In this document: piece by piece, positions 36,501 through 45,500 of the stretch | How the letters are laid out: the number at the start of each line of letters is the position of its first letter | Position numbering within the stretch: position 1 is the stretch's first letter | Assembly (NCBI RefSeq): GCF_000003815.2 | Contig: NC_049980.1 | Location: 25,378,272 to 25,442,271 of the forward strand | Length of the DNA stretch: 64,000 bases | Reading direction: 5' to 3' | Source: Branchiostoma floridae | Lineage: Eukaryota; Chordata; Leptocardii; Amphioxiformes; Branchiostomatidae | The notes under the pieces: model-generated | What the model was told of the DNA's origin: nothing | Databases searched by the model: none | The model's input: only the letters and a program-made list of their open reading frames with translations | Program-made: the position numbers and the translations under genes

Positions 36501-39500
36501 TTATTTTTGGTATACTGTTATGTGTTGGCTGTCACTCCCTAATACAATTGTGTATCGTATGTAGATTGGGTTTTGGGTTTCTTGGTTTCCGCCTTACAAG
36601 TACTGATGAATTGTTGTACCTGTCTTTCAGGGATGTCAAGCCAGACAACATGCTGTTAGATGCCAGGGGTCACCTGAAGCTGGCTGACTTCGGCACCTGT
36701 ATGAAGATGGATGATGTCAGTTATTCTCATTGTTAACAATTCAGCCATATTTGTGTAGCATTTTCTAGAAATATATTGTGGCAAATAATAAAATATACAC
36801 ATATATCAAAACTTGCATTTCTAACTTTTCTAGCTTCTTCAATCCTTACTGTATGTCTTAAGATTATCATAGTAGATATTCAGATGGCTTCCAACAGCAT
36901 GTTTCTACTGTTGAAAATACATATTCATGGTTGGTAGATAAATATGTCTTGTTTAAAACCATGCAAGTTGCACAACTTTGTTGTTCTGTAACATAATACA
37001 CTGGAATCTGCTTGTCGACCATGACACAGTACATGTAGTTAGTGATAAAGTATGCCCCTCCTATACAGAATGGTATGGTGCGGTCAGACACAGCGGTGGG
37101 GACTCCAGACTACATCTCCCCAGAGGTGCTGAAGTCTCAGGGTGGGGACGGGTACTACGGCAGGGAGTGTGACTGGTGGTCCGTCGGAGTCTTCCTCTAT
37201 GAAATGCTAGTTGGTAAGTTCCATACATCACACTCAAAGAGCTAAAAGTACCATATTATAGTCTAGATAACTAGTTTTGAATGGTTTCATGACACATTGA
37301 TACTATTTCAGACAGTTCTCATGACAAACCTTTTTTTTAGCAGCAAGTGATATTTGTTTTTATTCACAAGCTTTGATTATTTGTTTTTTCGCTCATCATT
37401 TGTCATCATTACATTTCTATTTTCCTCTATTTAAAATGCCTATTGCACAACAGTGAAGGTTTAGATCTGACATGAACTTTAATGCTCAGCCACAAGCGGA
37501 TGCTGCTGCTGCTGATGATTATACAACATCTAACAAAATGCTGTAGTATGTCAGTTTTCATTCAGTCAGACAGCGTTCTAATAATTGTTTGAACTCAACA
37601 TAATTGTTCTTTCCTCCGCCTGTCCAGGTGACACGCCATTCTATGCAGACTCCCTGGTAGGGACGTATGGCAAGATCATGGACCACAAGAACTCCCTGGG
37701 CTTCCCCGACGATGTGGAGATGTCCAAAGAAGCCAAGAACCTCATCTGTGCCTTTTTATCTGACAGGTACATTCATGTCTACAAGTCACGTTTACTGAAC
37801 TTAGGTTGCGCCAAATAGCAATGATAATCATCACTCATGAAAGTGGATATGATTTTAGAAATGGTCATATGTTTCAGATGACATCCTTTACCTTTTGTCA
37901 GTGACACTTGAGTTAATTATGTTAGAATTCACTGTAATGTAACACTAGGCTTAGTTACATGTCTCAGGAAATCTGATGAAGTGAAAAAAGAGGATGTTTT
38001 CTTTTGTATCGATTGTTTATTTGTTTTTCTGCTGTTTCCGCCAGATCTGTCCGACTGGGCAGGAATGGTGTGGAGGAGATCAGACGACATCCGTTCTTCC
38101 AGAATGACCAGTGGACCTGGGAGACCATCCGGGACAGTAAGTCAGGAGCTTACTCCTAGTAACATGTTTCCTATAGGAAATATGTTTCAGCTTGTTTGTT
38201 GTGAGGATTTCTAAAAGTTGCAGGTTTAATGCCAATCCTCTTCAATACTAGACCACTGTTTCTGCATTATATAATTTATAGCAAGTCATGTCGATAGAAC
38301 TAATGATTTTGTAGCAAATAAACTTGTTTGGCAGCTTATGTTCCTAGTTTGGTATTCCTGTTTGACTTTGAGGTACAGATACTGAGATAGATGTGATCCT
38401 TGTTTCTGATACAGGATGTTTTCATGTAATTTAGAACCAGTAAGGTTCAAAGTGTGAAGTAATTATACAACTTGTGTTATGTTAAGTTAACCTATGTACA
38501 ATGGGAAGCTCCATTGTAGTACAATTTCTAGACCAAGCTTCTGTGCCAATGATCATGTAACAGAACATGAAGTACAGTGGGTATCTACAAGCCTGTATAT
38601 TCTGTACACATACAAAGCAGGGAGTGCTGTTAGTGGTATGTTGTGAGCAGGTGGAGACAGATACAGCTTATACCCTGCTCTCAGTATGCTGTAGTATCAG
38701 GTGTCTTTAGATTGGGGTCAGTGAGTGCAAGAAGGCTGATTTGGGGGTTTCAGGTTGGTATATAGGTGATTACAGTGTTGTTGGTTGATCATACCACACA
38801 AACAGTGGGAATGGTTTGTTTCCAGTTGCTTTAGCTGGGTCAGCTGTATAGGATTACTGGGAGATTAGATCACTGGAAGGTTCACATCCAAGCTCCTACA
38901 AATCCTGTAGGAAATTCAGATCAGCAGTCTTGGAATTGCAATATAGAAATAAAAGAGTATAAGTACTATACTGTACTATATAGTAGAAATCAAAATGTAC
39001 AAGAAATGTGGAAGGAACATGCACTGGTATACAGTACATATCTCACCAACTACAACAGCTGCCTCCTTCATATTAGAGAAGAATACTGATTCTCTCTGTT
39101 AATGGTCTTTTTTGGACATCCTTCATCCTTGTCATTCTTTTAACAATTACCCTTTATGTCTTTATCTTACTTATTCTTCCCTATTCTCTTGTCTCTACTC
39201 TTCTGTACCTCAGTTGAAGCTCCCTTTATTCCTGAGCTTGAGAGCGACATAGATGCCAGATATTTTGAAGATCCAGATGCAGGTCTTTACTCTTTTAATC
39301 CCTTTCACCTCTTTGTATTCTCCATTTATACTTTTGCTTTTCTCCCTTTTCAATATTCAACATTCTGTGATATTCTTGACATAGTATGTGGAATTTATCT
39401 CTGTACCATTATACCTTGATCACAGTTAACTTACTCACTTAGATACGTTCATGAAATGCCACTGGGTCAGGATTTTTTTTTCAGTTTTCAAATTGTATGT

Positions 39501-42500: not shown

Positions 42501-45500
42501 CATGTGGTAACAAAATGCTGCATAGATTTGCTTTCGTCATGTTTTTTCTGCTTTACAAATCAATTCCTCCTTCTTGCTGTAATATTTCTTGCTCTCACTG
42601 TTCCTTTGCTTTTCTCACCCATAAGATGAAGGGTCCAACTCCAGCCTAAGTTTGAGCCATGGGGACTTATCTGTTGATGAAGGTTTTTTTTCTTACATTC
42701 TTAAACATCATTCTGATGCAGATTCTTACATCCTTGCCTTTGCATCTGTGCTACATTTTCCTTGCTGTTTTGTTTTATTATCCAACTGCATGATCCTTTT
42801 CTGTTTCTGACTTAGATCTGCTGTACTTTGCAATGTTTCTCATCTTTACTTTTATTCTGCCTCTGGTCATCTTTCATTCCAAGACCCAGATGCCACCCCT
42901 GTACCCTCCCCAACCAAAGTGGTACAGCCCATGCCATTTGCAGAAGTGTTACCAGGAGCAGAAGATAAAGAAAAGAAAACTGAGGAGGGGGAGGAGGAAG
43001 GGGTAGATGGAGAAGGTACAATGTTGATGAGGACAGCATGTAAGGTTAAGGATGAAATGTTTTCCATGGTTATTACCGGGGTAAGACCTCTGTATCACCT
43101 GTGAAGTTACTGAACTCAACTCTGTGATACTGGGAACTTTGATGATGTCTATGTATTAAGTGGATTAAGAAAGGAAGAGTGTAAGCTTGATTAGCATGGT
43201 TGTCAGTTGACCCAAACTTTTGTGTCAAACAGTCTGATGCACACTGTATGCAGCTGCATGGAGATTGAGCTTGTTGCCTTTTATTAACAATGTCAGCATC
43301 ATTATCCACAGATCAACTTCCACCAGTGTCTTCCAGATGGTGAGGTTTAGGAGGTAAAATGGAACTTCCTCATCAAACACCTTGTTTTCCCCTCGCAGCT
43401 GTTCCGCCTGTTGTCCCAGAGCTGAGGGGGGATGACGACACCAGTAACTTTGACGATATCGAGGACGACAAAGGGGAGGATGAGACCTTCCCCACGCCAA
43501 AAATCTTCGCTGGCAACCACTTGCCTTTCATCGGTTTTACATTTATTAAGGATAGTCCGTAAGTTCTACATATACATGTGTACACAATGTGCTGTCTTCT
43601 TATGAAATAGAAACTTGTAGCAACTCTGCATCTGTAACTTAGTATGGAAGAAAATCATGCATTCGTTGATGTTAATTTATTTACTCTGCAATATCTACAT
43701 ATGTAGAATGTGTAGTTGAAAATGTTGGAAATTGTAACATTATTTGTGTCATTTGAACCAAACCGAAGACAAGGATTTTGTTGACTGTGTCTACCTTAGT
43801 GAGCTTATAGACTGTTCCCACTTTTAGAAAAAAACATCCCGTCTCAACTTTATAGTCTCCTTTGTAGTGCAATACAACGGTACAACTCGGAATTGTGTGT
43901 ATAGACTTCCAGTGTAAGAATAGAGTATTTATGCAACATGTCAGTAGATTATCTATGCAAAAGCTTTAAGGTAGCTAGTCACGCAATGTTGATCATTGTA
44001 CTTCACTCTTCTGGTAACTTTCTTCTTTCTTTCTCCATGCTCTTCTCCTCTCTACCTTGCCATACAGGTGTTACCTATATACCTTGAGTCAGTAAGTCAC
44101 CTTCCTGACACACTCTTGTTCTTGCATGTTTTGCAAGATGCACAAAAAAGTTGCTTATCATTGTAGCTTTTATATAGAATGTTTCAGTCCCAGAGTTTTA
44201 CTGCATTGATTCTTATCACAAAGATGTTCATACCTAGAATTTTGCATTTCTTGTATTGCATGCTGACGACATTGCTCCATTCTATGCCATTTAGAACATC
44301 TTGCATCTAGTCACCATTCTATCCTATTTGTTTGTTTGAACCTTTGTTTATTCATGAAAGCTCCAATCGGCCTGCAAGTTGCTTTTCATTGATGTTGTGT
44401 TATCACTTGTTTCTGATGTAATGTTTTGATGTTTCTTTTACATACTACATGTGTGAAGTTGTTGTATTTCCTTTGTTACAGAGTGTTTCAGGTTGGTTTG
44501 AGACCAGACAATCGAATTGAGGAGGTAAGATCCTGAAGTGGGAACTATGTGTTCTATAATATAGGGATAGCATTTCATCAGGCATCCTTTACTCAGGCTA
44601 AGTGTGACTGGTAAAATGTGTTTCTTGTGTCATTTCTGCCATTTTCCCCAAGAGCTTATTCATACATGTATAATGCTTTTTCATCAGGCACTCCTTTCCT
44701 GATAGCATTTTGTTAGGCATCCAATTTCCTTAATAATATCAAAAGTTTGACTGTTAGAATGCATTTCTTACGTCATTTCGGCCATTTTCCATGTGAACCA
44801 ATACATGTAGAAGCTTTTTCTCAACTACACATGTATAAACCGGCAGAAGTGTAGAACTGCACATATACACTTGTGGTTAGAGTTATTTATGTTACCGAAA
44901 CCAAGGCACTAGTGTTTGCTTAGCAAATGCAATATGAAAAGCAAGGATGTTTGTGTTACAACTTGCTTTCGTACCTGTGCAGGTAATAAAATCATCTGTT
45001 AGCAATTTAGTAGTTTTCCTCTTGCCTCCCTTGTGACTAAAACTTTTTGTCTCTTTCTATCTGTGGCTCCTGTGATGCTGTCATGTTCAGATTGATGTAA
45101 GTCCCACATCTCATTGCCTTCGCATTCTGACATCACTTTTTTTCATTTTGTGTGTTTGGGGTGGAGGGATGTGTGTGAATGTTCATGTGTGTATTATTCA
45201 CTTATAAAAGATTACAGATGATATCTGTAATGTCTCACTGTTTCCAAAATCATATCCAGTTGCTTGAGTAATTGCTATTTGGCGTTCATGTGTGCATGTT
45301 GTTGTCATAGGCAAAGCCAGAAGCGACAGTAATGTGTTGGTTTGTAACCTGTCTTACTGTTGTCTTTTATTTATTATTCATTTGTACTATGACTATTAGT
45401 GACTATGAAATTACTCACTTTGCTCATTGTTGGCAGCTATTTTATATCATTCTGTTTGTGTCACATTTCAGGGTGGAAGAATGGTCAATCAAGTTAGCAG

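What the first reader, a model, noticed from the sequence alone, without database searches (positions are those of the whole stretch)
39214..43015. Nine consecutive phase-1 cassette exons between the ROCK kinase lobe and its AGC tail
Seen: nine candidate exons (69, 69, 87, 54, 75, 78, 75, 57, 132 nt) lie between core exons 9 and 10. Each has a plausible acceptor and an open frame in the one phase that fits, and each is a multiple of three, phase 1-1. Any subset, or none, keeps the ROCK frame (up to 2^9 combinations, at most 232 extra residues). Known: vertebrate ROCK1/2 join the equivalents of exons 9 and 10 without such an array. Inference: this is a combinatorial splicing module placed between the catalytic core and the activating C-terminal tail. 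It could tune how the tail folds back on the kinase, and it adds Ser-, Pro- and acid-rich linkers. I know of no description of it.
Basis: partly seen in the sequence, partly recalled or inferred. Interest (0 to 1): 0.92.

Follow-up and report, generated by a model that had tools for sequence, protein, structure and literature searches.

The report
Optional exon array in amphioxus ROCK
In lancelets, the gene for the cell-shape kinase ROCK carries nine optional protein segments at the point where the enzyme meets its activating tail, and the first segment is a second copy of the start of that tail, so splicing may rebuild the enzyme's control arm.

Summary
The nine cassettes are real. A ROCK gene runs through the window; between exons 9 and 10 lie nine phase 1-1 exons that together encode the 248-residue insert of an annotated Branchiostoma ROCK isoform (247 of 248 residues identical). 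Corrections: c2 is 105 nt, c4 66 nt, c9 has a second acceptor. Sequence-only criteria were not above chance; annotated relatives carry the proof. Of eight Branchiostoma cluster representatives found, two have all nine cassettes, one has seven, five have none; B. lanceolatum has both states. Free 2^9 combination is not shown; inclusion looks block-like so far.

Best model: a default-skipped, jointly activated block that inserts a replacement tether plus a charged Ser/Pro-rich loop. Splicing is supported by annotation (no reads seen here); regulator and kinase effect are inferred. No such insert was seen in the 204 non-amphioxus proteins listed (capped lists).

The parts
38045..38136 (+). ROCK exon 9 (end of the kinase C-lobe, ...WTWETIRD), ends in phase 1, donor ACA|GTAAGT
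39214..39282 (+). cassette c1, 69 nt, [23 protein letters not shown]: second copy of the AGC tail start; donor CAG|GTCTTT
   Evidence: present in P0001-P0003, 23 of 23 residues identical in both comparisons; tail HMM 24.4 bits, best of 20000 shuffles 14.6
39913..40017 (+). cassette c2, 105 nt; in-frame alternative acceptors at 39928 and 39949; donor AAG|GTTCTT
40458..40544 (+). cassette c3, 87 nt; donor AAG|GTTCAC
41452..41526 (+). cassette c5, 75 nt, basic patch [13 protein letters not shown]; donor GAG|GTTGTC
41800..41877 (+). cassette c6, 78 nt, Pro-rich; absent from P0003; donor AAG|GTTCAT
42314..42388 (+). cassette c7, 75 nt, contains RRNT; absent from P0003; donor AAG|GTCTTT
42626..42682 (+). 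cassette c8, 57 nt, Ser-rich; donor AAG|GTTTTT
   Evidence: 19 of 19 residues identical in P0002 and P0003
42884..43015 (+). cassette c9, 132 nt, acidic; second acceptor at 42890; donor AAG|GTACAA, the one cassette without a pyrimidine-rich tract downstream
43399..43558 (+). ROCK exon 10: AGC tail start ([18 protein letters not shown]) and the following tail up to LPFIGF
39289..42738 (+). pyrimidine-rich stretches at +7 to +56 behind the donors of c1 to c8 (fraction 0.68-0.80)

Best explanation
A block of nine optional exons, so far seen only in Branchiostoma, lies in the ROCK gene between the kinase lobe and the AGC tail. Shown (annotation and sequence): all nine occur in annotated Branchiostoma ROCK proteins; the block can be absent, complete, or complete but for c6 and c7; c1 encodes a second copy of the tail start, with the PxxP of the C-lobe tether and the active-site-tether Phe in the spacing of exon 10; all nine donors lack +5G and eight are followed by a pyrimidine-rich tract, while acceptor tracts are ordinary. 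Inferred: U1 alone holds these donors poorly, so the block is skipped by default and switched on as a unit where a pyrimidine-tract factor (TIA1/TIAR acting through U1C is my first candidate) stabilises U1. Inferred: in the long protein c1, joined directly to the end of the kinase lobe, docks as tether in place of the exon-10 copy; the other cassettes and the displaced exon-10 copy form a roughly 250-residue flexible, acidic, phosphorylatable loop ahead of the N-lobe tether and hydrophobic motif. The fold would be kept while tail closure, phosphorylation or partner binding changes.
For: Insert identical to P0001 in 247 of 248 residues. Skipped and included forms both annotated in B. lanceolatum: P0011 and P0003. 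c1: 24.4 bits against a ROCK-tail HMM, best of 20000 shuffles 14.6. Donors: +5G 0 of 9 against 28 of 29; matrix scores do not overlap. Downstream pyrimidines 0.696 against 0.569 +/- 0.039 at random points of the same introns, fraction 0.0008. Acceptor pyrimidines not different, p 0.61. Compensation of weak donors by downstream pyrimidine tracts, mediated by TIA proteins, is described in PMC2766253 (abstract and section 20). c1 present in the three insert-bearing representatives and absent in the five others.
Against: No reads were seen; the proteins are computed gene models. c9 has no pyrimidine-rich tract (0.42). P0003 lacks c6 and c7, so inclusion is not strictly all-or-none. U1 duplex energies of cassettes (-5.8 to -0.2) overlap those of other donors (-12.6 to -1.3). 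The tract words fit a PTB-like repressor as well as TIA, and part of their excess comes from ten acceptor tracts in the interval. -3 of the acceptor is a pyrimidine in 7 of 9 against 23 of 23. Docking of c1 was not modelled; its DNA is not recognisably like exon 10.
Confidence: 0.45

Rival explanations
1. Free combinatorial splicing: each cassette is chosen on its own, CD44-like, giving many linker lengths and charges.
For: All nine are symmetric phase 1-1, so any subset keeps the frame; one seven-of-nine form exists (P0003); clusters hide members (14 behind P0001, 13 behind P0003).
Against: Only three insert states in eight representatives, two of them all or none; one shared donor class for all nine suggests common control.
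Confidence: 0.2
2. Plain disordered linker: the exons are regulated, but c1 does not dock; exon 10 keeps the tether role and the insert is only a spacer or docking region between lobe and tail.
For: 69% of insert residues are S/T/P/G/charged/amide, net charge -30; exon 10 keeps the full tail (53 of 53 residues conserved in both comparisons) and fits the ROCK-tail HMM far better than c1 (62.9 against 24.4 bits).
Against: c1 keeps the tether pattern, is identical in the compared records, and sits directly behind the lobe.
Confidence: 0.3
3. Repressor-gated block: pyrimidine tracts on both sides of the exons bind a PTB-like repressor, and release of repression, not TIA activation, brings the exons in.
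For: TCTT 53 against 26.4 and TCTTTC 6 against 2.4 expected from other introns of the gene; tracts lie on both sides of the exons.
Against: Relief of repression alone leaves donors with little U1 pairing; TTTT is enriched too (93 against 55.7), and the excess partly reflects ten acceptors.
Confidence: 0.3
4. Splicing noise: rarely included exons that the gene-model program strung together.
For: Very weak donors; sequence-only criteria not above chance; c6, c7 and c9 vary.
Against: c1, c2, c5 and c8 near identical, frames open and the same junctions in all compared records that have them; GC higher than 5000 random placements.
Confidence: 0.08

Closest known systems
CD44 variable-exon array (recalled, no call)
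   Same: About nine tandem in-frame cassette exons that insert a Ser/Thr/acid-rich stretch between two folded parts.
   Different: CD44 is a surface receptor; here the array lies inside a kinase at the lobe-tail joint, its first exon copies the neighbouring constitutive segment, and free combination is not shown.
AGC-kinase C-terminal tail (CLT, AST, NLT; PMC6143667, passages read)
   Same: c1 has the PxxP and the Phe spacing of the C-lobe and active-site tethers.
   Different: A second, optional tail start ahead of the constitutive one; I know of no other AGC kinase with this (recall).
Splice variants of kinase tails: AKT2 without hydrophobic motif (PMC7703976) and DCLK tails (PMC10602587), both seen as search listings only
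   Same: Splicing changes a C-terminal regulatory segment of a kinase.
   Different: Those change or remove a tail end; here up to 248 residues with a tether copy are put in before the tail.
TIA1-supported weak 5' splice sites (PMC2766253, abstract and section 20)
   Same: Weak donor followed by a pyrimidine tract.
   Different: Here the design recurs at eight neighbouring exons of one gene; TIA dependence is not tested.
Greatwall/MASTL kinase (PMC5342071, passages read)
   Same: AGC-type kinase with a long, poorly conserved insert.
   Different: Its roughly 500-residue insert lies in the activation segment, not before the tail.

Membership tests
ROCK gene (Rho-associated AGC kinase) | AGC kinase domain with tail, coiled coil with Rho-binding part, PH/C1 region | tested here: met
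   tblastn with recalled human ROCK1 and with P0001; Pfam PF00069 and PF08912 precomputed for P0001
Tandem cassette-exon array | Adjacent symmetric exons that can be skipped or included in frame | tested here: met
   Nine phase 1-1 exons; annotated proteins with 9, 7 and 0 of them. Gene models only, no reads
Tandem cassette-exon array | Independent (combinatorial) choice of exons | tested here: inconclusive
   Three states in eight cluster representatives; members hidden by 90% clustering
Mutually exclusive exon cluster (Dscam-like) | Only one exon of the set per transcript | tested here: not met
   P0001 and P0002 carry all nine together
AGC C-tail, C-lobe and active-site tether (for c1) | PxxP followed at fixed spacing by the aromatic-acid motif (F-D/E) | tested here: met
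   HMM 24.4 bits for c1 alone, 0 of 20000 shuffles (17120 scored) above 14.6; ROCK1 best in PDB, E 0.0065, with five exon-9 residues included in that query
AGC C-tail, C-lobe and active-site tether (for c1) | Docks on the kinase lobe | not testable with these tools
   Proteins exceed 1200 residues and joined exons are not among allowed inputs; no structure job was run
TIA-dependent weak-donor exons | Weak donor with a pyrimidine-rich tract shortly downstream | tested here: met
   9 of 9 weak donors, 8 of 9 with tract
TIA-dependent weak-donor exons | Inclusion falls when TIA proteins or the tract are removed | not testable with these tools
   needs a minigene or knock-down
Exons read by a variant U1 snRNA | A U1 copy with a 5' end complementary to GTTC-type donors | tested here: not met
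   14 of 14 matches of 132 bits or more begin ATACTTACCTG, as do L021 and L022; L016 begins differently but does not fit GTTC donors; at the match start of the other 6 of 23 (L017-L020, L023, L024) my pattern did not read a 5' end
Esrp- or RBFOX-controlled exons | Enriched GGTGG (Esrp) or TGCATG (RBFOX) in flanking introns | tested here: inconclusive
   GGTGG 1 against 3.7 expected; TGCATG 7 against 3.1 (Poisson p 0.038, 19 patterns tested, uncorrected; 0.006 of 500 Markov sequences)

The most novel reading that the evidence does not exclude
A splice-controlled tether exchange in an AGC kinase: turning on one block of nine exons replaces the tail start of ROCK by a second, diverged copy (c1) and turns the ordinary tail start into part of a long regulated loop, so that one gene makes a vertebrate-like ROCK and a second kinase with a different activation arm. 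The nine exons would be switched together through one shared class of weak, pyrimidine-dependent donors.
Probability: 0.3. Interest if true: 0.75.

Novelty: new variant of a known kind. Interest (0 to 1): 0.58.

Why it matters
The C-terminal tail is a hallmark regulatory element of AGC kinases such as PKA, AKT, PKC and ROCK. A natural gene that can insert up to 248 residues, led by a spare tether copy, exactly at the lobe-tail joint would be a ready test of how far that arm can be rebuilt without losing activity. On the RNA side, a row of neighbouring exons with one weak-donor design is a compact model for coordinated control of tandem exons.

Tried and rejected
Sequence-only significance of the cassettes: not above chance, so I rely on annotated relatives.

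Variant U1 snRNA as reader of the GTTC-type donors: no such copy among the 14 high-scoring matches of 23.

Esrp control: GGTGG 1 against 3.7 expected, GGGTGG 0 against 1.6. RBFOX: TGCATG 7 against 3.1 (19 patterns tested, uncorrected); a weak lead only.

Origin by recent tandem duplication: of 36 cassette pairs only c6/c9 passed z 3 in DNA (3.6, 100 shuffles each), and c1 against exon 10 is at chance in DNA (14.0 against 13.6 +/- 2.0) although related as protein.

Mutually exclusive splicing: rejected, all nine occur together.

Copies of the cassettes elsewhere in the genome: not tested by protein, the request did not complete; a 68-base probe from c2 gave one match, the window itself.
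Full report
What is there. tblastn with a recalled human ROCK1 and with the annotated Branchiostoma protein P0001 places a ROCK gene on the + strand from a first coding exon at 18505 to at least 63713. The window lies in an unnamed 513-Mb assembly. Exon 9 (38045-38136) ends with WTWETIRD in phase 1, and exon 10 (43399-43558) opens the ROCK tail in phase 1. 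Between them lie the nine cassettes, all a multiple of three, phase 1-1 and open.

Are they more than chance. By mechanical criteria alone the interval is not special: 15 non-overlapping candidate windows against 12.0 +/- 2.5 in 300 Markov-simulated sequences, and two of the nine (c2, c7) failed my acceptor filter. The nine intervals are richer in GC (mean 0.524) than any of 5000 random placements (maximum 0.504). The proof comes from relatives. A protein search scored on the cassette region, with ten flanking residues on either side, returned ten proteins with E at most 1: three Branchiostoma ROCK proteins with E of 3.2e-104 or lower, and seven with E of 0.65 or more that cover 14-16% of the region, whose alignments I did not inspect. 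The 248-residue insert of P0001 (B. floridae x B. japonicum, isoform X1) is the window translation with one difference. tblastn itself listed seven of the nine cassettes, not c5 and c7. P0002 (B. floridae x B. belcheri, X7) has all nine; P0003 (B. lanceolatum, X4) has seven, without c6 and c7. Which parent of the hybrids P0001 and P0002 come from was not determined. A second search, scored on the exon 9/10 joint, brought five more Branchiostoma representatives without any cassette: P0011 (B. lanceolatum X14), P0012, P0014 and P0015 (B. belcheri X2, X4, X3) and P0013 (B. lanceolatum 'ROCK2'). Skipped and included forms thus both stand in the annotation of one species. These are computed gene models; I saw no reads.

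The maximum insert is 248 residues. The claim of up to 2^9 combinations is not borne out by the three states in eight representatives, but clustering at 90% identity hides members (14 behind P0001, 13 behind P0003).

Conservation. Identical residues of P0001 in P0002 and in P0003 are: c1 23 and 23 of 23; c2 35 and 34 of 35; c3 26 and 27 of 29; c4 20 and 21 of 22; c5 25 and 24 of 25; c6 25 of 26 and absent; c7 22 of 25 and absent; c8 19 and 19 of 19; c9 35 and 38 of 44. Kinase residues 1-348: 348 and 346. Exon-10 tail: 53 and 53 of 53. No DNA of the other species was available, so selection was not measured. The three protein searches listed 204 non-amphioxus proteins (two of the lists were cut at the best 120 of 1006 and of 2195). 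In 198 a pattern finds exactly 27 residues from the Trp to the tail Phe-Asp. On inspection P0135, P0209 and P0211 have the same spacing, P0132 and P0154 lack the exon-9 sequence, and P0005 is an unnamed kinase, probably not ROCK, without insert. None has such an insert. The named ones are mostly vertebrates, with arthropods and the brachiopod Lingula; no ambulacrarian or tunicate is named.

c1 is a tail copy. c1 ([23 protein letters not shown]) aligns without a gap to the start of the ROCK tail. In the PDB sequence set, c1 preceded by five exon-9 residues matches ROCK1 best (E 0.0065), then CBK1 (0.013), ROCK2 (0.017), AKT2 (0.29) and MRCK (0.41); the five residues help the ROCK matches. The cleaner test used c1 alone: against an HMM of 32 distinct ROCK tails it scores 24.4 bits, as much as a recalled PKA tail. 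Exon 10 scores 62.9, five other cassettes 1.6 or less, c2, c5 and c6 no score, and the best of 20000 shuffles (17120 scored) 14.6. It keeps a PxxP, which PMC6143667 places in the C-lobe tether (passages read), and the Phe of the active-site tether (recalled). In DNA it is no longer like exon 10, so the copy is old or convergent.

Donors. Scores with a recalled weight matrix do not overlap (highest cassette -0.3, lowest other 0.1); U1 duplex medians are -4.1 and -8.7 kcal/mol with overlapping ranges. Pyrimidines at +7 to +56 are 0.68-0.80 for c1-c8 and 0.42 for c9; the other donors have a median of 0.50, range 0.40-0.72 (p 0.0007). The mean of the nine, 0.696, exceeds random points in the same introns (0.569 +/- 0.039; fraction 0.0008). 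Acceptor pyrimidines do not differ from 23 other acceptors (0.80 against 0.75, p 0.61), though -3 is a pyrimidine in 7 of 9 against 23 of 23. The U1 genes offer no fitting variant: 14 of 14 matches of 132 bits or more, among 23, have the usual 5' end. In most metazoans studied, downstream pyrimidine tracts anti-correlate with donor strength, and the tract effect on Alu exons was mediated by TIA proteins (PMC2766253, abstract and section 20). TTTT (93 against 55.7) and TCTT (53 against 26.4) are both enriched over other introns of the gene; part of this reflects ten acceptors in the interval, and a PTB-like repressor fits as well as TIA.

How it likely works. Weak donors make skipping the default and leave the ordinary ROCK. 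Where a tract-binding factor is active, or a repressor absent, the block comes in. In the long form c1 follows the kinase lobe directly and can take the tether groove. The rest of the insert becomes, with the exon-10 tether copy, a long loop ahead of the N-lobe tether and hydrophobic motif; over the whole 248 residues 69% are S/T/P/G/charged/amide and the net charge is -30. c5 adds a basic patch (net +6) and c7 an RRNT site. That c1 is present in the three insert-bearing proteins and absent in the five others fits, but the number is small.

Literature. Searches for amphioxus or Branchiostoma with ROCK, Rho kinase, microexons or cassette exons and for ROCK or AGC tail splice inserts listed no paper whose title or abstract start describes this array. 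The library holds open-licence papers only, the lists were capped, and apart from PMC2766253, PMC5342071 and PMC6143667 the hits were judged from listings.

Verdict. A real, annotated and, as far as these searches go, undescribed cassette block: a new variant of a known kind (tandem cassette array), made interesting by the tether copy and the uniformly weak donors.

Noticed in passing
44068-44091: A 24-nt phase 2-2 microexon (CYLYTLSQ) directly after exon 10, present in P0001, P0002, P0011 and P0012 and absent in P0003, P0013, P0014 and P0015; its donor is strong (GTAAGT).
   Followed up: partly
50200-50806: Two further optional ROCK exons in the coiled coil (about 50200-50248 and 50699-50806; [16 protein letters not shown] and [16 protein letters not shown]...), absent from P0002; the second again has a weak donor AAA|GTTTGT and pyrimidine-rich downstream sequence (0.76).
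   Followed up: partly
59461-59620: An optional exon of about 52 residues ([26 protein letters not shown]... then acidic) between coiled coil and PH region, absent from P0002; donor GAAG|GTGATT without +5G.
   Followed up: no
54333-54371: A partial copy of the start of the exon at 54853 (DLKSNEANM), behind an acceptor-like CTACAG; looks like a decayed exon duplicate.
   Followed up: no
P0003, C-terminal part: The B. lanceolatum isoform X4 has a Pro/Ser-rich C-terminal extension of about 345 residues that P0002 lacks and P0001 has only in small part.
   Followed up: no
40204-43255: Seven TGCATG (RBFOX-type) words in the introns of the block, 3.1 expected from other introns of the gene.
   Followed up: partly
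7263-7877: Two arrays of a 70-base unit whose consensus units look like reverse complements of each other.
   Followed up: no
P0016 (Hyalomma asiaticum): This tick ROCK model carries the kinase-end and tail-start sequence twice in a row (residues about 260-400), possibly an assembly or model artefact.
   Followed up: no
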